This document shows positions 23,641 to 64,000 of a stretch of DNA of 64,000 nucleotides, in pieces; position 1 is the stretch's first letter, and each line of letters opens with the position of its first letter. The stretch spans positions 1-64,000 of the forward strand of contig JAQGDQ010000554.1 in the NCBI GenBank assembly GCA_030141605.1, read 5' to 3'. The position numbers were made by a program, and so were the translations under genes. The DNA is from Tubiluchus corallicola. Its lineage: Eukaryota > Priapulida > Priapulimorpha > Priapulimorphida > Tubiluchidae. The notes beneath the pieces are model-generated. The model saw nothing but the letters and a program-made list of their open reading frames with translations, made no database searches and was not told where the DNA came from.

Positions 23641-24674
23641 GATTTTGCATGCCACTTACTTGGTACTTACTCGACAGGTTTTACATTTTAGATAACAGTC
23701 ATGGAACTCTATCTGTTTTTGAATTTTCCCACTTTATTTACTGTGACTTATTAACATGGTGACAACGTCTTCTGACAGAGTATTCCAAATAACAATGATT
23801 CGATGAGATAACAGGAGTCTTATTATGTCAGTTTATTTTATCTTATTTATTATTATTATTATTATTTATATAATCTTATGATTGTACTACTTAAAGTTAC
23901 TAGCCAAACAGGACTATGACACTTGACAGGTACTACAACTAACCAAAGCGGCAGTGCAGTGTGCACAGAGGAATTCACGGAAAGTTAAGAGCTTATTTCT
24001 GCTATGGTCCTGAAAAATAAAAATCCCGTGCTGCCACCCTCTCAGTCCAGCAAATGTCAAGAAAATAAGTGACATCAAATCTACAATACATAGATCGCAG
24101 AACGTCAATCAGTTAGTGGGGGTCCACCTCGCAATGGCCTATCAGATGCTGTATTTTCGCTCTAATTGCTTTTCTATTGATGAGGCCTGGAACTTACTCC
24201 CAACCTCAAGGGTATTTGCACGTGAAGCACACAATAATATACAGAGAATCTGTGTGTTCATGATTGTTTTTACTTATTAAATTCATTAGATAGCAGTGAA
24301 AGAGAGTATAGAATGGTGAAGTGTTGTTCTTAGGGCACATGTATCGTGGATGCTCGGTACCCAGAAGGGTTAGAAGTCCAGCTCATTTGTTTCCCCAATC
24401 CAAAAATATGCACTTAGACAAGTATCACCAATGGATCGAAGCATGCGGGAGCCACAAGAACAACTCAACCCATTCAAAATTAATAAACATCCTGCTCTCT
24501 GCTCAAAGTTTCCTAATGTTTTACTGTTACTACTGGCTACATGTAGAAATGTGGCGTGCTAATGCTACTAATGAAGCCACACATTTTTTATTCAAAATTA
24601 AATACATTGTCCATCATTCCAAATTATGTTTCAATTGGAATTTATATTTTTTTCAGATTACTAAAGCTATTTTA

Positions 24675-26579
24675 ATGGATGAAGGTGCAAGTGTGTGCTG
24701 GGTGCCAGACTCCTTACTATTACATATCTTCAAGAACTTACAAGCTAAGCATCTTCTTAATGCTGGTCAAGTGTGTAAGCGTTGGTATATTGTTAGCCTA
24801 GACGAACTGTTATGGAAAGATCTATTCTACAGAAATTTCCACATAAGTCGCAATGTTGGCATGGCACCAGGAAAGTTTTCCTGGTACAGCGAATACAAGC
24901 GTTTATATTACCGTACACCTTTAATTCAGACCGAGGTGTTGAAAGCTCATACAGATCAAGTACTTCACGTATCATTTTCACGTAATGGCAAATATTTTGC
25001 CACGAGTTCTAAAGATGGTTTTGTGAAATTGTGGAATGCGGTCACCCCCAGTACAGTTAAGTACAGCCAAGACATGAAAACGTTCTGCTGGAAGTATACA
25101 CAGTTTTCCCAGTTTAACGAAAGTGACACAAAACTACTTGTATCAGGCGTCTACTTTGGTTCACATAGCACTTCAGGAGAAATAGCTGTTTTTAGCATCG
25201 AAGAGGGTGAGTTAGTTTTGCAGTGCAGAGTCATTAATAGACCGTATGACATATTTGGTACGTGGTATAATGACGAGTATTTATTTTCTGGTAATTTACA
25301 CTGGATGGGACATCTCGTTTCATGCTCTGCATTGTGGATAAACAGGGCTTCCCAAGTAACAGAGTCAGAGTGGGAGTGTGTTGTAAAACGAGTTTATAAA
25401 TTTTGTAATGTGAATGCTAGTTCTATCAGGACAGTAATGGTTGCCACCCCTTCCCAGTTCTCTACTTCGGATGTTGACGTAACTGAAGAAGATCTGACAG
25501 AGCAGGCAACAGCCGAAAAGGCATGTTCTAATAAAGTGAGACTCAAAGAAACAAGGGTGTTCGTAAATGGGATGTATCGAACGCGGCTTGTCCCAGAAGA
25601 TGTCAGTACAAATAATTCGTTGAGAGAAAGTCGATCCACTAGTCAGCTGAGTGCCAAAATTGAATATGATGAACATTATAGGAATGCAGAAAGTCGTCTG
25701 TCCTACACTTTGGATGAAGAAGAAGAAAGTACTGCTCTAACGAGTGATGCCGCTGCCACTTTTTCTACAGCTGAATCTTCTTCTTCTCTACAAACAGGAA
25801 GCATCGATTTTGAATCAGAAGATGACCTTGATGAACCACCATTTAGGCGATTCTCTGGTGAGCTGCAGCTGCTCGATCAACGGGATAAACTACTAATTTT
25901 TACAACCGGTTCTAAGACTTATACGCCCCACCAGATAGGAATAAAGGTCATCCAAAATCTGGCCATGGAGAAAACGCATGCTGCAAGACCCCCAAGACTA
26001 ACAGATCTAGGCGTTCGGATGCTACCTAATGATGGAGAAGAACATGGAGGACATCACTTGCCAGGTAACTTTGACCTGGAAAATTTAGAACAATCTTTTG
26101 ATGATATTGATTACTTGATCGATCTAAATGGCCATATTATTGGAATGGGTCTTTCTCCAGATAACCGTTTTCTTTATGTAAATGTAAGGCCATGGCCGGA
26201 AGGATGCGAGATAGAGAATCCTTTGGATCCGCCCCCAATTGCACAAGAAATTGACATCCGCGTTATCGACTTGTTGACAATGCGGCAGGTTGGTACGATG
26301 CACAGATGTCATAAAGCGTATACGCCAAATAATGAATGCTTCTTCATCTTTCTTGATGTGTGCAAGGAGTATGTTGCTAGTGGAGCAGAAAATAAGAATG
26401 GGCACTTGTGGGACAGGCATTATGGCACGTGCATTGCAAAGTATCCTCATCAAGACGTAGTTAACTGTGTGGCATTCAACCCCGTGGACAATGAAATGTT
26501 AGTTACTGCTAGTGATGATAACACAGTCAAAGTCTGGCTGTCTCGACATCATGTGGCAAAGTTGAAGCGAAAGTCTTAA
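24675..26579 (+). CDS. FBXW5: FBXW5, F-box/WD repeat protein 5
   Basis: Substrate receptor for SCF and CUL4-DDB1 ubiquitin ligases; the vertebrate protein acts on targets such as SASS6 and EPS8 (family knowledge). The 634-residue product starts MDEGASVCWVPDSLLLHIFK, matching the vertebrate start MDEG. The F-box is at about residues 8-55 (PDSLLLHIF...VCKRW...DELLWKDLFYR). WD repeats follow: LKAHTDQVLHVSFSRNGKYF...KLW near residue 90, and a C-terminal block HGHIIGMGLSPDNRF-like (NGHIIGMGLSPDNRFLYVN), YTPNNECFFIFLD, HLWDRHYGTCIAKY and VTASDDNTVKVW. It is longer than the vertebrate protein (566) because of an acidic/Ser-rich insert around residues 260-400. The whole CDS is one exon. An acceptor (AG 24655-24656) 18 bases before the ATG implies an untranslated leader exon, so the open frame further upstream is intronic. 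Confidence 0.97.
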   Translation: MDEGASVCWVPDSLLLHIFKNLQAKHLLNAGQVCKRWYIVSLDELLWKDLFYRNFHISRNVGMAPGKFSWYSEYKRLYYRTPLIQTEVLKAHTDQVLHVSFSRNGKYFATSSKDGFVKLWNAVTPSTVKYSQDMKTFCWKYTQFSQFNESDTKLLVSGVYFGSHSTSGEIAVFSIEEGELVLQCRVINRPYDIFGTWYNDEYLFSGNLHWMGHLVSCSALWINRASQVTESEWECVVKRVYKFCNVNASSIRTVMVATPSQFSTSDVDVTEEDLTEQATAEKACSNKVRLKETRVFVNGMYRTRLVPEDVSTNNSLRESRSTSQLSAKIEYDEHYRNAESRLSYTLDEEEESTALTSDAAATFSTAESSSSLQTGSIDFESEDDLDEPPFRRFSGELQLLDQRDKLLIFTTGSKTYTPHQIGIKVIQNLAMEKTHAARPPRLTDLGVRMLPNDGEEHGGHHLPGNFDLENLEQSFDDIDYLIDLNGHIIGMGLSPDNRFLYVNVRPWPEGCEIENPLDPPPIAQEIDIRVIDLLTMRQVGTMHRCHKAYTPNNECFFIFLDVCKEYVASGAENKNGHLWDRHYGTCIAKYPHQDVVNCVAFNPVDNEMLVTASDDNTVKVWLSRHHVAKLKRKS

Positions 26580-48326: not shown

Positions 48327-48332
48327 TTTATT
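48327..48332 (-). terminator. Candidate UreF polyadenylation signal
   Basis: AATAAA on the minus strand about 215 bases after the UreF stop. No usable signal exists between the C19orf53 stop and the UreF start, so this site would serve both reading frames if they share one RNA. Confidence 0.5.
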
Positions 48333-48545
48333 GATCATTAAACATATTTGTTTCTGAAGGTTATACAGCTGTCTTCTTTCTTATTACAAAACAGAACTGA
48401 CATCAGTGAAAAATATAGAAATTAGATTACACGTAGATTTGTGTCAACAGATTCAGCAAATTCTCTTAAAGAAAACTGTAGTGAAAGAATACCTCCCTGC
48501 TTTAATTTGTGACTAAAACTTTTTAATGTCAAAGCAAGAACAAGT

Positions 48546-49259
48546 TCAAGAGTAAAAAAGTCTAGCAAACAAAGTATCATGCATATTCTGAACAATATCA
48601 ACAATGGGACAACTAATATGAGCATTTTCAACAGATGATTCGGCATTTCGAGCAATGATACCAGGAATTAGCTGCTGAAGACTGAATAACAGCCTCTGTG
48701 CCTGAAAGCAGCCTATGTGACCTAGGCGCACAGCACCTGACGAAATGGTGCGCAGTACGCCAAACATAAACACGTTCAACACAGCTGACATTTCAAGCTT
48801 TAAATGAGCACAAATGCATCCCAGAACAACAGGGTAGTGTCCAAACATTTTATTGTCATCTATCAGTTCCTGGAGATCGGCAATAAATGAGACGTGAAAG
48901 ATTTCTCTGCTTGTGTTCACCAGAGCTCGACCCTGCCTGACACTCGCCCTGTTTGCAACATGGTTGGTGACACTGGCTTGGTACAAAGCATCAAGTTCCA
49001 TCAGTCGGTCTTCAGACGACGCATTTTTGTAGGCGTCTTGAAGAAACGGCATGCTCAATGAGCCGGCGTTTTCAAGACACGATATAGCAAACTTCTTGAA
49101 ATCCTCGTCACTGTTGTCAACGATGTGCAACTTCACAGCGGCTTCATACCCGATGCTGTGACTGAAACTTCCGGTTGGAAATGCACTGTCAGACAACTGC
49201 AGCAAAAGTAATTCTGCCGACACTGTGTTGTCCGATTCTGTTGAGCAGGCCTTTGCCAT
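48546..49259 (-). CDS. ureF: Urease accessory protein UreF
   Basis: UreF joins UreD/UreH and UreG in the complex that loads nickel into apo-urease in the cytosol (family knowledge). The 237-residue product has the family signature LLQLSDSAFPTGSFSHSIGY at residues 18-37, then an all-helical pattern. Later motifs include NRASVRQGRAL, FGHYPVVLGC and SGAVRLGHIG, and it ends HDTLFARLFYS, like plant UreF proteins. Length is normal, so it looks complete and intact. It is a single exon. ATG 49259 is in a strong context (ATACCATGG) and an in-frame TAA lies eight codons upstream, fixing the start. It begins 14 bases after the C19orf53 stop on the same strand, suggesting a shared transcript. Animal-type codon composition and linkage to intron-bearing animal genes argue against bacterial contamination. 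Confidence 0.95.
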   Translation of the reverse strand: MAKACSTESDNTVSAELLLLQLSDSAFPTGSFSHSIGYEAAVKLHIVDNSDEDFKKFAISCLENAGSLSMPFLQDAYKNASSEDRLMELDALYQASVTNHVANRASVRQGRALVNTSREIFHVSFIADLQELIDDNKMFGHYPVVLGCICAHLKLEMSAVLNVFMFGVLRTISSGAVRLGHIGCFQAQRLLFSLQQLIPGIIARNAESSVENAHISCPIVDIVQNMHDTLFARLFYS

Positions 49260-49273
49260 GGTATCTGACGATA

Positions 49274-52200
49274 TCAGGACTTATCCGATGAGGTGGCACC
49301 GCCTTTATCTGAACTACCCGAATGACCAACTACTTTAAAAGCTTTTGATTCGGCACCAGCTCTGACTAACAACTCGGACTCTATGTTTTTGTTTATAGCT
49401 TTTTGCAAATTCTGGAAAATAAGTACAAACAGTAATAAGAAAATATAAATAATGCACTTACAATGATTAAAACTTCATTTTAGGTGATATCAGTACTAAA
49501 AATTTGAAAATCACTTTCACAATGCAGAAATCATTTGATAACAATAATTAAACTTAATAGACTGTAAATCCTATTTAAGTTTAATAGGATGAAAAGCTAT
49601 GTAGGTTTGTTACATACATTTTTTGTACAAGATATTGTTTAGATCAATATTTAAAAGCCAAGCTTCAGATTTTTTGTTATTTCTGAGGTTTCCAATCACT
49701 TGTGCTTGAAAGTTCTAGTACACCACATATACTTCAGTGAAACTGATTAGCTAAACAGAATAGCAAAATGAGGAATACAATTGAAATGAAAAATACATGT
49801 ATATATAAAAAGCAGTGCAAAAAGAGTTTGAATGAATTATATAAACAACCTTACTTTTTTCAGTGTTTCAGATTGAACTTTTTTAGCCTTTTTTGGAGCA
49901 ATATATTTTGCACCTATAAAAAAGAATAATACTACAGTTTGTGTAAGCTACAATGGAAATTGTGGACCCCATAAATTTCTTTGAATTTCAGCATTTTGTG
50001 TATTTCATGTGGGCTTGACCAGCAGTTTGTCCAACGCACTCAAGTTCACATTCGCAACAAAAAATTAAGGGTTATGTGGAAGTTTGCAATTAAGACTCAG
50101 TACAAGTTTATCTCATTTGGGATGCACAGAACAAGTCTGACTTGTTATTTTTACCATTATCAAAAGCATAGTGGCTATTACCATTGCGGCTACGTCAATG
50201 TCGCACTGAGCATTTTGTAGGTTTGGAGATTCTTGTGGACTTGTTAGTCACCGCCATAATTTTTTAAAATGAATAAATCCTTTTCAGAATTAGAACCAAG
50301 GAAAAAAGAAAGAAAGCACAAAGCATTTCAAACTACTACTGTAATTCTGTTCTAAGTGGACAAAAGAAAAAGAAAAATCGTAATGCATTACTAAATTAAT
50401 TTTCTAGGTGAGTTTTTCATTTATATTATTAGCACAAAAAGGATGTCATACGAAAAAGGATACAAGCAATCGCACAGAAAAAACTGTAGCACAGCAGATT
50501 AAAATACAAAGGAGAAACATAGATGCATAAAATCCCTAAGTAGTCGTAGTCACAAAACAGAGTGGGACACAACAGAAACTAACGAAACGTTTAATATAGG
50601 CGGTGGTTTATACGTACAAAAAGTTAACTGGTTACATAGAAGATAAACAGAATGCAACCATGGAGTTCAGAGTGAATAACAAAAGATAAAAACTGCACAA
50701 AGTGATTAATCAGAAGAAATGAGTAAACACACTAGGCTACAGGCAATAGCCAAAAGATCATGGCATCAAGTTAACAAATTACTTGAAAAAGTTGACTATG
50801 GATAATGTAAAAAGTTAACTAAATTTAAGCGGTCCACCTAACACAGACTACGCTAGCAATTTCAGGCATTAGTTAAATCTTATCAGTATTCATAGTTAAG
50901 TTTAACTCAAGTTTGTCCACTTTCTAAGACGTTAGCTGCATTCAAAGTGCTAGTAACGCCTGATTGTTTTCAGTGGATGCCTTAAACTTAATTAAGTTTA
51001 AATAATATCTATAGATGACGGGTTTTAAAAATAATTTGTTAACTTAATATCGCAGGAGTTTTGAACTTTTGGCTCTACCCATATTGTGTTCATACCTTTC
51101 TTCTAATTAATTACTTTAGACAGTTTTGTTTTCTCCTTCAGGGTAGCTTGTATTGCATCCGTCCTCTCTGTTGATTAATCATTTCATAGAGTTTTATTCT
51201 TTTGCCATTCACTCTCCACTCCATGGGCTGTATTCTGTTTATCTTCTACCTAAACTTTGGAACTTTTTCTTGTATACAAGGCATGTCCCTGTTAGACAGT
51301 TTCTGTCATGTTCCACTCTGATTTGTGACTGCTGCTACTAACTGCACATTTGTGCACTTTTCCTCCGTGTCTTTATTTGCAGTACTTCTGCATTTTTTCT
51401 GCATTCTTGTATCCTTTTTAGTGAGATATCATTTTTACATATTAATAATATATAAACAGAAAACTTCCACAAAAGATTATTTAACGGCTCTAGTAATTTC
51501 TTGTGATTTTCTCTGAACTTTTTGTCCTCGTTTGTTCACCTCAACTACAGTGATACTAGGGATGCACCAACGATTTTTTTCTCCGAATATCAGTATAAAA
51601 ATCCGGTCCGGCGAACTTCGGTTATAATCACTGAACGTTCAGTGAACCTTCAGTATACCGAAGTTACTTTTTTAACAGCTATCACATTCCGTAAAAATTA
51701 TATTAAAAGAACCGAAAATTTACCTACAATGCTTAGAAAAATTTATCCGAAAAAAGCTGATAGTAAACAGCAGTCATGGCCCTACTGCCGACATTTGCTT
51801 TCTGTATGATAACTAGAAGAATGCAATGCACCATCAGCACACAATTCGTGTCAATTCAGACGTAGCGTGGCAGTGCAGTAATTGTTTATACACGACGTAT
51901 TGGCTTTTCCACTTCGAAATCAATCAATGAGAACTCGAGCTAGTAAACAATTATACTATTGCAGTTTTGCCAAAATATAGTTTTTATTGATTACACAAAA
52001 TAGTTTGAATACCTTTTGAAAGAATTAGGGCTGCTTATAAAATATTTAATACTTTAATACATAACATTAAACAAACAGATTTACTAATCAAAACAATTTT
52101 TCACAACTTACCAATCATCACTAACTTAAAATGATAAAACATTACAGAGTTTATAATTCATTTAAGCTTTGGTTTGGTGGCACCTGGTTTTGGTTCGGAT

Positions 52201-53720
52201 GGTGAAAATGTGCCGTCGGTGCACCATTAAGTGATACTTTGAAGGCAGTGACTAGAGGTACAGATCCGTATCCAGAACTGCAACAACTAAAAATACGGAT
52301 CCATGTCTAAAAAGCATTCACTAGAAAATACGGAGGATCCGTACTGGGAACCATATTGACGAGAAATACGGTTCGCCATCAGAGAGGGGCAATATATCAT
52401 TTTCTTGTTTATCCGCAACCTCAAAATCCACAATTGTAAATATCCGCATCCGCTAGACCCGCAGATTGAGTGAAATTGAATATCCTCATAGATATCTATA
52501 TTACGTAATCCCTAGATAGGACACGCGGTGAATGCACGCAACACTCCGTCATATTACGGTGAGCGACACATCACCTGAGCAGTGATAAATCACAACTCAA
52601 ACTAAGGAAAATTACAGTTAGTAGGTTATCACATTCACAACACTCTATAGAAAAAAAATACTGGCTGGTAGGTCATCATATTACAACACTCTAAGAAATT
52701 CATAACACACTAAGATTTAAACTCTTGCTAACTGGCCTACTACACATCAAAATACTAAAGTTTTTTGTAACAAATAAACAAAATAAAGCAAACAAACTAT
52801 TAATTGGTAGCTTCTGCAACACCAGCAAAATGGTACCGAAGAAAAACGGTATGGTTACAGGCTGTATAATGCCATATCACCATTTTCATGAAGTAGGCAT
52901 GTACTTTTCAACGATGTGCAGGGCACATGGTCAAACCCCGTATGTCATAAAAATTGTCAAAATCCGTATGTCTTGTAAATGTCACAAAGCGCGGATCCGT
53001 ATTTGTTGCAAAAATAGCTACGAAGACGGATCCGTATCGCAGGAAAGACAAGTACGGATCCGTACCTCTAGCCACTGCCTACTTTGAAATGTTGCACATG
53101 TTCTTTCTTTTTTCTTTGTCTTTTAATTGTGGGATTTTTTTGTTCATTGTTTATTTATTTACTTTATCATATTTATTATTTTCAAAATAGGGTTTTAAAT
53201 GAGGTGACAAAAGACACAGAAGTGCCCAAAATTACTTTCAAATATAATTATTGCTGCTGCCATAATTTGATTATTGTCGCCTGTGCCTCGGTGTTCGGTT
53301 GCAGTGGCTAACTCAAAATTTTAGTTTTTCGTGCATTGTCGGCTTTTCCTGCAATATCGGGAAAGGGCATGTGGCAGAAAGATGTGTGTGAAAGGCTGAG
53401 TGGGGAACGGCACACAGGTTTTTGATGATTGTCTTCATTTCAGGTTATTTGCTATCAATTTGATTTTGGATTAGCTCGTTGTATAATAGCTGGAATAGTA
53501 AATAATTTGTTCCAAGGTCATTTGTTCTTGTGGTCGATCTGATGTTGAATTCGATCCGTTCAAACCACCGTTTCAAAATTTCTGCTACGTTGAGAGCTAT
53601 AGCAGTTACCATTATTAATGTCTCACCTTTCTTTGGACCTAAGACTTTTTTGTGAACAGATGACTTCTTTTTGCTGCCTTCCGGCGGTTTAATTTTCGTC
53701 TTCAATTTACCTTGTGGCAT
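49274..53720 (-). CDS. C19orf53: C19orf53 / UPF0390 homologue (small basic protein)
   Basis: Three coding exons on the minus strand: 53720-53627, 49913-49855 and 49411-49274. GT/AG borders and phases agree; 96 residues (human 99). It begins MPQGKLKTKIKPP, is Lys-rich, and has KYIAPKKAKKVQSETLKKNL followed by QKAINKNIESELLVRAG. This matches the human segment with [20 protein letters not shown] and RKKIEHDVVMKA. The human protein (Leydig cell tumour 10 kDa homologue) is a nuclear/nucleolar candidate of unclear role (family knowledge). Intron 1 is 3.7 kb and carries two nested DNA transposons; intron 2 is 443 bases. The stop (TGA 49276-49274) is only 14 bases before the UreF ATG, with no room for its own 3' UTR or poly(A) signal. 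The identification rests on a short but well-aligned sequence. Confidence 0.88.
51557..52229. mobile_element. hAT-like non-autonomous element
   Basis: In C19orf53 intron 1. Ends TAGGGATGCACCAACG and, inverted, TAATGGTGCACCGACG are imperfect inverted repeats of a common hAT type. An exact 8-bp duplication AGTGATAC flanks it (51549-51556 and 52230-52237). At 673 bases, no transposase is present. Confidence 0.85.
52244..53079. mobile_element. DNA transposon with 9-bp target duplication (Mutator-like?)
   Basis: In C19orf53 intron 1, 836 bases long. Ends GGCAGTGACTAGAGGTACAG and, inverted, GGCAGTGGCTAGAGGTACGG are inverted repeats; subterminal ATCCGTA words recur throughout. An exact 9-bp duplication TACTTTGAA flanks it (52235-52243 and 53080-53088). 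Nine bases fits Mutator-like elements best. The interior has many copies of the word ACGGATCCGT or close variants in both orientations. Confidence 0.85.
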
Positions 53721-60796: not shown

Positions 60797-62165
60797 TATT
60801 TATGTAATGTTCTCTTATACCCAAATTTCATGCTGATAATTGGAAAACATTCAACACAATATATTAATTAGAATCAAATATATGAGTAAAGGTGTACACA
60901 AATATCAAAAGATTTATTTGAGTAGCCAAATGTATTAAAATTTGAAATTATAGTATTTTTGCATACTTTGCTGCAATACACTAGCTGGTTTATAGGCTGT
61001 TAAACTGAGTATATATTTGCACATTGGGTAATTTGTAGCTTTTCTGCTGATTCATGTTGGCAAACAGCACAAATGAAAATATTTGTTATCAATAGACACT
61101 TTTTGAATTACATTAATATTGCCCTTTAAATTCATTCAAGGTGTGTATTACTGAATTTTTGAATTACACACCATAAAAATGGTAAAAACAAGAACTGAAA
61201 TTTTTAAGATTAGCAGGGCTAATTGAATTGGATATGCTGTCTGCTGCAGACTTATGCGATATATTTTAGAGGCGAATAATTTTTTTTAAATTTTTTCAGT
61301 GACTTCACTGGCTACTCAGTCAAGAGGTGTCTTCCAGATTTTATTAACTTCCAATTGATTGTGATGGCATAGTTCAGGGTTAAAAAATTACCATGTCTGG
61401 ATACTCAGGACAATCAGTTTTTTCACTGATAAGAAGAGTTTTAAGTGTTAATTTTAAGTCGGGTAGACTGTCAGCCCTGAGCAAATAATATTGCTATAAA
61501 CAAAGGCAATAATGATATTAAGACTGAGTTATTTTAAAAATTATGGCTATGCATACCACTTTTAATTGCTGTGTTAAAAGATAAGAAAGTCAGTAGAAAC
61601 ATTATACTGCATGTGTGATATTGCAGGCACACAAACTGCAAAGTTAGGTGCTGAATGTTGATTGTATACATTAATTTATAGAGTTTCTGTGATCACCTTG
61701 ATATTTGGTAAAAGCCTAACAAGTTTTATTGTCACAATAAAATGGTAGCATGAGCACCAGAGAAAAGGGAAGGTCAATAAAATTAAAGTCAAGTACATTT
61801 TCGTTACAAAACATTAAAATAAATGAGAAATGGTGACTAAAATTAAGAAAAACTGATGAAATCAATTCATAAATTTTGTTCATTTTTTATTTTATTTTTA
61901 GCTAATTTCATCCCGATGTTGTTAATATTTATGCCTCACTTTTGATGATAAAAAAACAGCACGAGATAAATGGCAATTGCTTAGAATATAACTAGCAATA
62001 TTCAACCAATACAACGATGTTAAAATGATAGATATCATTGAGAACAGTGTAAACAAGTTTTTTAAATTTTATTTGCTTCTATGTTCTTAGCATCTTCTTT
62101 ATTTTGATAAAATGTTGCTGAGTTGTCTTTTTTCTGTTTATAGATGATGCAATACTAGCAGCATT

Positions 62166-64000
62166 ATGGTTGTGAAGACTGCAGGAGGAATCATGGAGAA
62201 TAATGAGCTAGAGGAACTCAAACAGCTCATAAACCTTTGGAATGCAAACAGATATGACATGTTTGAAATTAGCGCTCCGGATGAGACCGGTGAATTCCAT
62301 GGTGTCATGAGGTTCTATTTCCAGGAGCATGGAGCAAAAGTGGCCACCAAATGCATTCGAGTTGGCAGTACAGCCACCACCAATGATGTCATAGCTACAC
62401 TTATTGAAAAATTCCGTCCAGATATGCGAATGTTAGATCTGCCTGAGTACTCGCTGTATGAAGTCCACGTGAATGGAGAAGAGAGAAAGTTGGGACCATT
62501 GGAGCAACCTCTTTTTGTTCAGCTGAATTGGGGAGTTGATGATAGAGAAGGCAGATTTTTGTTGAAGACAGAAGGTGATGTGAAAATACCTGCCAGGGAA
62601 CAAACAGATTTGAACAGAAAGTTGTCAAAACGAGAATCAAAGAAGAAAAAGAAACGTGAAAAAGAAGCAGAGAAGAAGAATGAAAAAGACGACGGGCATG
62701 TAGCTGAAAAGCTATATTCTGAGTTGCCAGAAACTAGCTTCACACGAAGTATTTCTAACCCAGAAGCAGTGATGCGTCGTCGTCGACAACAAAAGCTTGA
62801 AAAAAAGTTGCAAGAGTACCGTAGTCAGGATGGGGGCCCTGACACTGGTGGTACATTGAAGATTTATGGTGAATGCTTAGACCCAAAAGTGCCTTATAAA
62901 ACATTACTGTTGTCTATTACTGATCGAGCTTATGGCATAGTGAGACAAACCCTTGATAAATATGGATTTGAGAAAGAAGATGCTGATAATTATTGTTTGT
63001 ATGAGGTACATATACCACAAGATGGTGAATTTCATGGAACCACGTCAAAAGAGAAAGTGTTAGATGATGATGAAGCCCCTCTTGCTATTTTAATGCATCC
63101 ATCCCCTACTAGGGATCAAATTATTTTTCAGATAAGAAAACGGCCTGCCGATCACCCCCCTAGAAGGCGGAGGAAGCAGCAGAAGCCAACAGTCCATGCT
63201 GATGCTACTGATAGTGCACGACTGGATTCACCACAGAATCCAAAGAATACTTTACCATTTTTGCTGCAACTGAATCCTGATGGCTCTGATATAGTAGGCT
63301 CTGTTCCTGTAAGACATAAGCTTTATCCTAATGTAACTGAAGTTGGAAGTGAACGTCCCAATACTAGCGAACAGTGCTTGCAGTTGTTTGGCCCAGATAT
63401 CCATCCTCGGCATTGTTTAATTGCATGTACTGGAGGCATAGTAACAGTGACTCCATCTAATCCGGATGCAGAGACTTGGATAAATAACCAGCGCATTCAA
63501 GAAACAACAATGTTACAAGACGAAATGGTTGTGCGATTTGGTCGTATGCACACTTTTCTTTTTTGCGATTCTTCTTCAAGAGAAGTGTCTGAGGATCAGG
63601 GAGAAGCAGGTAATAAAACAACGTCCGAGCAGCCAAACTATGAGACAACCTTTGATGTAGATGGCCACATCCAAACATCTGTTTCTAGTACACAGTTAAA
63701 TCGTATGGCAGATATGTCAGATGTTATGCGGAATCCTTCTTTGAGAATAGAAGTACTTCCAGCAACACTGGAATTTAGAGAAAATGCAGAAAGTCAACTT
63801 TTGACCCACATAATTGCTCATGCAGATGTGCATCAGTTGCAGTTTAAATTAGCGCCAACCTACACGCTATATATGGCTATACGTTATCGAGCCTCACGTC
63901 AGTACCGTCCTGATGCATCACCTATGGAACGTGCACAAAGGCTAACAGCTTTTGCAAACAGAATTGCTAACATTATTGGAGAAACTGTCCAAGCTGTACA
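62166..64000 (+). CDS. AFDN: Afadin (MLLT4/Canoe), N-terminal part, runs off window
   Basis: Adaptor linking nectin-type adhesion and Ras/Rap1 signalling to actin at cell junctions (family knowledge). The open frame runs from ATG 62166 to the window end, giving 611 complete codons. RA domain 1 is at about residues 44-134 (FHGVMRFYFQ, TKCIRVGSTATT, FRPDMRML, YSLYEVHV). A basic KKKKREKEAEKK stretch and SFTRSISNPEAVMRRRRQQK follow. RA domain 2 is at about 228-326 (GGTLKIYGECL, PYKTLLLS, VLDDDEAPL). An FHA domain is at about 388-467 (TEVGSE, LQLFGPDIHPRHC, VTVTP, ETTMLQ, VRFG). The start of the DIL domain is near 560-611 (LAPTYTLYMAIRYRASRQYR). All this lies in one uninterrupted exon, whereas vertebrate afadin is split here. 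An acceptor at 62143-62144 implies a leader exon. The PDZ and C-terminal regions are outside the window. Confidence 0.97.
   Translation, partial: MVVKTAGGIMENNELEELKQLINLWNANRYDMFEISAPDETGEFHGVMRFYFQEHGAKVATKCIRVGSTATTNDVIATLIEKFRPDMRMLDLPEYSLYEVHVNGEERKLGPLEQPLFVQLNWGVDDREGRFLLKTEGDVKIPAREQTDLNRKLSKRESKKKKKREKEAEKKNEKDDGHVAEKLYSELPETSFTRSISNPEAVMRRRRQQKLEKKLQEYRSQDGGPDTGGTLKIYGECLDPKVPYKTLLLSITDRAYGIVRQTLDKYGFEKEDADNYCLYEVHIPQDGEFHGTTSKEKVLDDDEAPLAILMHPSPTRDQIIFQIRKRPADHPPRRRRKQQKPTVHADATDSARLDSPQNPKNTLPFLLQLNPDGSDIVGSVPVRHKLYPNVTEVGSERPNTSEQCLQLFGPDIHPRHCLIACTGGIVTVTPSNPDAETWINNQRIQETTMLQDEMVVRFGRMHTFLFCDSSSREVSEDQGEAGNKTTSEQPNYETTFDVDGHIQTSVSSTQLNRMADMSDVMRNPSLRIEVLPATLEFRENAESQLLTHIIAHADVHQLQFKLAPTYTLYMAIRYRASRQYRPDASPMERAQRLTAFANRIANIIGETVQAV

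What the first reader, a model, noticed from the sequence alone, without database searches (positions are those of the whole stretch)
48546..49913. C19orf53 and UreF form an operon-like pair with a 14-base gap
On the minus strand the C19orf53 stop (49276-49274) is followed after only 14 bases by the UreF ATG (49259). No poly(A) signal, terminator or promoter fits between them; the next minus-strand poly(A) signal is downstream of UreF. The spacer reads TATCGTCAGATACC. Its CAG (AG at 49266-49265) could be a trans-splice or alternative cis-splice acceptor placing UreF five bases from its 5' end. The upstream pyrimidine tract is weak, so read-through dicistronic translation remains possible. The UreF ATG context is strong and an in-frame stop upstream rules out a simple fusion. 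Such tight pairs are known from SL trans-splicing animals such as tunicates and nematodes.
Basis: partly seen in the sequence, partly recalled or inferred. Interest (0 to 1): 0.75.

Follow-up and report, generated by a model that had tools for sequence, protein, structure and literature searches.

The report
Two unrelated genes, probably one mRNA
In an invertebrate animal genome, the only gene for a urease-assembly protein (UreF) starts 14 bases after the stop codon of a ribosome-assembly gene (C19orf53), and since there is no start codon between the two start sites, both proteins could be made from one messenger RNA, an arrangement known from flies and green algae but not yet shown here by any RNA data.

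Summary
On the minus strand a three-exon C19orf53 (DUF2462) gene ends at 49274 and a single-exon, full-length UreF (237 aa) starts at 49259, 14 nt later. Both look real and single-copy, and the genome also holds urease, UreD and UreG. Hox genes make the animal a protostome, probably lophotrochozoan, not a tunicate or nematode. The trans-splicing reading is weak: the proposed acceptor at 49264 has no pyrimidine tract (56% of window YAGs score as well), and an upstream mRNA ending there would have almost no 3' UTR. New here: the spliced C19orf53 coding sequence contains no ATG in any frame except its initiator, so the next AUG is UreF's, in a strong context. That fits a dicistronic mRNA read by leaky scanning, as reported for Drosophila stoned and Snapin and for green algal bicistrons. 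The absence follows from the protein sequence, so it is permissive, not proof of selection. The main rival is an internal promoter: TATAAA at 49397 plus an initiator at 49367 (2% by synonymous recoding). No RNA or relatives were available, so the transcript structure is inferred.

The parts
53627..53720 (-). C19orf53 (DUF2462) coding exon 1, ATG at 53720, followed by a GT donor; start context GCAGACTATGCC
49855..49913 (-). C19orf53 exon 2, no ATG in any frame
49274..49411 (-). C19orf53 exon 3 with stop TGA (49276-49274), no ATG in any frame
49260..49273 (-). 14-nt intercistronic spacer TATCGTCAGATACC; its CAG ends at 49265 and is a poor splice acceptor
48546..49259 (-). UreF, single exon, 237 aa, start context ATACCATGG (A-3, G+4)
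   Evidence: only UreF in the genome
49392..49397 (-). TATAAA inside exon 3: candidate internal promoter for UreF
   Evidence: 30 nt before the initiator; synonymous null P=0.02
49363..49369 (-). Initiator-like TTAGTCA, A+1 at 49367
48849..48854 (-). AATAAA inside the UreF ORF, a possible poly(A) signal for a C19orf53-only mRNA
   Evidence: P=0.38 by synonymous recoding
48522..48527 (-). ATTAAA, first candidate poly(A) signal after the UreF stop
48327..48332 (-). AATAAA, candidate poly(A) signal downstream of UreF

Best explanation
C19orf53 and UreF are transcribed from the C19orf53 promoter into one spliced, capped, dicistronic mRNA polyadenylated after UreF (near 48.5-48.3 kb). Most ribosomes translate C19orf53. 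A fraction scan past its start codon (A-3, C+4, so not optimal) and, meeting no other AUG over 305 nt, start at the UreF AUG (A-3, G+4). Shown from sequence: gene structures, spacing, absence of intervening AUGs, start contexts, poly(A) hexamer positions. Inferred: the shared transcript, leaky scanning, and the relative amounts of the proteins.
For: The gap is 14 nt, with no in-frame fusion. The spliced message has ATG only at positions 0 (C19orf53) and 305 (UreF); none of 1,319 overlapping 288-nt windows in UreF, FBXW5-like and afadin-like coding sequence is ATG-free. No AATAAA or ATTAAA is placed so as to end an mRNA between the genes. The UreF start context is strong. UreF is intact, matched nearly end to end to solved UreF, and the only copy found in a genome with urease, UreD and UreG, so it must be expressed if the pathway works. 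Precedent: Wall et al. 2005 (title, cited in PMC4528330) on absence of in-frame AUGs in the first cistron of two Drosophila dicistronic transcripts; PMC11892635 reports underrepresented start codons before ORF 2 and in vivo tests in green algae, and used a 14-nt inter-ORF; FlyBase lists 159 dicistronic pairs (PMC4528330).
Against: No RNA data and no relative. The lack of ATGs follows from the protein: with its sequence fixed, 94% of synonymous recodings are ATG-free, and 12% after residue shuffling, so it is not evidence of selection. The C19orf53 start has A at -3, which limits leakage. A TATA+Inr pair in exon 3 offers a simpler route. The internal AATAAA could end C19orf53 mRNAs inside UreF.
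Confidence: 0.48

Rival explanations
1. UreF is nested in the 3' part of C19orf53 but has its own promoter in the last C19orf53 exon (TATAAA 49397, start near 49367), giving a monocistronic UreF mRNA with an AUG-free leader of about 108 nt; C19orf53 mRNAs either run through UreF as 3' UTR or stop at the AATAAA at 48854.
For: TATAAA plus YYANWY at exactly 30 nt; expected in 2.0% of synonymous recodings of exon 3 and about 4.4% of 152-nt windows. The leader would contain no ATG.
Against: One motif pair found after the fact; 22-25 such pairs occur per strand in the window. No TATAWA lies within about 280 nt upstream of the C19orf53 start, so TATA use in this genome is untested.
Confidence: 0.27
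2. Alternative cis-splicing: an upstream leader exon (C19orf53 exon 1 5' region or another) is joined to 49411 or 49264, so that UreF is the first ORF of an alternative mRNA.
For: Exon 3 has a good acceptor at 49411 and no ATG, so any non-coding leader joined there makes UreF the first ORF.
Against: No such leader exon identified; the acceptor at 49264 is poor.
Confidence: 0.12
3. Termination-reinitiation on the same dicistronic mRNA rather than leaky scanning.
For: Stop and start are 14 nt apart, with no competing AUG near.
Against: A 96-codon first ORF and a 14-nt gap are unfavourable for reinitiation (general knowledge).
Confidence: 0.07
4. SL trans-spliced operon: the pre-mRNA is cut between the genes and UreF receives a spliced leader at 49264.
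For: A CAG five bases before the UreF ATG; tight spacing as in tunicate operons (distance cut-offs of 84 and 60 bp used in PMC7986045).
Against: No pyrimidine tract. Cutting at 49264 leaves C19orf53 with at most 9 nt of 3' UTR and no AATAAA or ATTAAA in place. Protostome Hox set. The bdelloid SL pattern is absent. No SL family in the 5S array.
Confidence: 0.06

Closest known systems
Drosophila stoned (stnA/stnB) and Snapin dicistronic loci (Wall et al. 2005, as described in PMC11892635 and cited in PMC4528330)
   Same: First cistron lacks internal AUGs; second cistron has its own start; two separate ORFs
   Different: There the dicistronic mRNA and leaky scanning were tested; here both are inferred. 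Different genes and phylum.
Green algal bicistronic loci (PMC11892635)
   Same: Short inter-ORF (14 nt in one locus used there), few or no AUGs before ORF 2, good ORF 2 context
   Different: Algae favour weak ORF 1 contexts; here ORF 1 has A at -3. Organism unrelated.
SL trans-spliced operons of tunicates and nematodes (PMC7986045)
   Same: Tight same-strand pair
   Different: Animal is a protostome with lophotrochozoan-like Hox genes, no SL found, poor acceptor, no room for the upstream 3' end

Membership tests
Animal dicistronic locus (stoned/Snapin type) | Two complete non-overlapping ORFs of separate families on one strand with a short gap | tested here: met
   14-nt gap, DUF2462 and UreF
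Animal dicistronic locus (stoned/Snapin type) | No internal AUG in the first cistron | tested here: met
   none in any frame over 305 nt (explained by the protein sequence)
Animal dicistronic locus (stoned/Snapin type) | Weak or diverged context at the first start codon | tested here: inconclusive
   A at -3, C at +4; no species consensus available
Animal dicistronic locus (stoned/Snapin type) | A single mRNA spanning both ORFs | not testable with these tools
   no RNA data; no retrocopy of the mRNA in the genome
SL trans-spliced operon | Functional splice acceptor directly before the downstream gene | tested here: inconclusive
   CAG present, but pyrimidine content at background
SL trans-spliced operon | SL RNA genes in the genome | tested here: inconclusive
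   bdelloid SL absent, none in a 5S array; an unknown SL cannot be excluded
SL trans-spliced operon | Poly(A) signal of the upstream gene before the trans-splice site | tested here: not met
   no AATAAA or ATTAAA in exon 3 or the spacer

The most novel reading that the evidence does not exclude
A lineage-specific obligate dicistron in a lophotrochozoan that puts the nickel-urease assembly factor UreF under the transcription and start-codon leakiness of a ribosome-biogenesis gene, so that urease maturation is tied to growth; the AUG-free coding sequence of C19orf53 made it a permissive host for a downstream ORF.
Probability: 0.25. Interest if true: 0.55.

Novelty: new member of a known kind. 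Interest (0 to 1): 0.4.

Why it matters
I found no paper describing dicistronic nuclear genes in lophotrochozoans, though only two narrow searches touched this. If confirmed, this would add a clean case in which the first cistron has no AUG besides its start, and would show how a single-copy accessory gene can be expressed with no promoter of its own. Gene predictors that allow one ORF per transcript would miss or split such a pair.

Tried and rejected
HGT or contamination of UreF: the locus is joined to afadin-like, ACAD10-like and TMEM117-like genes on one contig (names from my reading of the ORFs); no prokaryotic genome gave a close relative (which detects close relatives only); the UreG and UreD matches are split into exons. 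Recent retrocopy: no intron-bearing parent UreF was found. Fossil evidence from a processed copy of the joint mRNA: none. COX1 for taxonomy: not in the assembly; 18S gave only a 3' fragment (an Rfam genome search failed). The DUF2462 genome search missed even the known gene, whose exons are short, and is uninformative. Selection against AUGs in C19orf53: not supported, the protein sequence alone explains it.

Full report
What is there. On the minus strand, C19orf53 has coding exons 53720-53627, 49913-49855 and 49411-49274, with GT-AG introns and a continuous 96-aa product. It matches DUF2462 (E 3.7e-17) and the human Leydig cell tumor 10 kDa protein homologue, solved in seven PDB entries (from general knowledge these are pre-60S ribosome structures, so a ribosome-assembly role is the likely one). 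Its last residues (GGATSSDKS) resemble the human end (AAATSSKTPS, recalled), so the stop at 49274 is probably the natural end of the protein. After 14 nt (TATCGTCAGATACC) UreF begins at 49259 and runs uninterrupted for 237 aa. It covers the UreF family (E 2.4e-30) and aligns over nearly its full length to solved UreF.

The organism. G000 is a 343.5-Mb animal genome. Its Hox homeodomains include one with a UbdA-like peptide (KENQALKEMKEQ, L011) and two posterior genes that resemble Post1 (L016) and Post2 (L017). This points to a protostome, probably a lophotrochozoan; the phylum is not settled and the assignments rest on my knowledge of Hox signatures. The genome holds one urease (an intronless 860-aa ORF), a UreD exon, a UreG in four exons and this one UreF. 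UreF is therefore the single-copy member of an apparently complete pathway and is unlikely to be a pseudogene.

Trans-splicing. The CAG at 49267-49265 has 50% pyrimidine and 30% T in the 20 nt before it; the two real acceptors of C19orf53 have 70-75% and 60-65%. In the window 56% of all YAGs are as good or better by pyrimidine content. If the RNA were cut there, C19orf53 would keep at most 9 nt of 3' UTR, and no AATAAA or ATTAAA lies in exon 3 or the spacer. A bdelloid rotifer SL, recalled from memory, was not found with two mismatches. A 5S rRNA array, a common home of SL genes, shows only 5S matches in Rfam. PMC7986045 names platyhelminths, rotifers, tunicates and nematodes among SL users; its text does not mention molluscs, annelids or Lophotrochozoa. 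An SL of unknown sequence remains possible.

Leaky scanning. In the spliced message ATG occurs at position 0 (C19orf53) and next at 305 (UreF). UreF starts in a strong context (A-3, G+4); C19orf53 has A-3 but C+4. Coding stretches of the same length from three other window genes average 7-8.6 ATGs, and none of 1,319 overlapping windows has zero. But this is a property of the Lys-rich, Met-poor protein: 94% of synonymous recodings and 12% of residue shuffles are also ATG-free. It makes leaky scanning possible; it does not show selection for it. In Drosophila the absence of in-frame AUGs in the first cistron decides translation of the second (title of Wall et al. 2005, cited in PMC4528330), and in green algae removing or adding AUGs before ORF 2 changes its output in vivo (PMC11892635). 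FlyBase counts 159 dicistronic pairs, many with monocistronic isoforms too (PMC4528330).

Internal promoter. TATAAA at 49397 lies 30 nt before an initiator-like TTAGTCA (A+1 at 49367), 108 nt upstream of the UreF ATG. A TATAWA with an initiator 28-33 nt on appears in 2.0% of synonymous recodings of exon 3 and 4.2-4.5% of 152-nt windows. That is suggestive but was found after looking, so it stays a rival. A mixed state (dicistronic plus monocistronic UreF) is plausible.

Poly(A). An AATAAA in that ORF has P=0.38 by chance. ATTAAA at 48527 and AATAAA at 48332 follow UreF.

Verdict. A real, tight, same-strand pair of intact unrelated genes. The most likely reading is a dicistronic mRNA with leaky scanning, with an internal promoter next. 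It is a new example of a known kind, and its transcript structure is unproven.

Noticed in passing
L002 / G000:C2178:86.2-88.9 kb: The only urease gene found is a single uninterrupted 860-aa ORF (plant-like fused form) next to an SLC7-like amino acid transporter, while UreG and UreD matches are split into exons; two of four urease-pathway genes are single-exon.
   Followed up: partly
window 24312-26576 and 62148-63998, L045 2-4312: FBXW5-like and afadin-like genes have very long open exons, suggesting marked intron loss in this lineage.
   Followed up: no
L006 1198-1880: Only the 3' part (683 nt) of an 18S rRNA gene is found, joined abruptly to other sequence; a dispersed rDNA fragment or assembly join.
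   Followed up: partly
L054 (G000:C779:38400-48300): 5S rRNA array with repeat units of about 407, 622, 953 and 1130 nt that reverses strand near its end, as in a palindromic array or assembly fold-back.
   Followed up: no
L008-L017: Hox genes are spread over several contigs; C1217 carries three genes within about 66 kb and C1190 two anterior-class ones.
   Followed up: no
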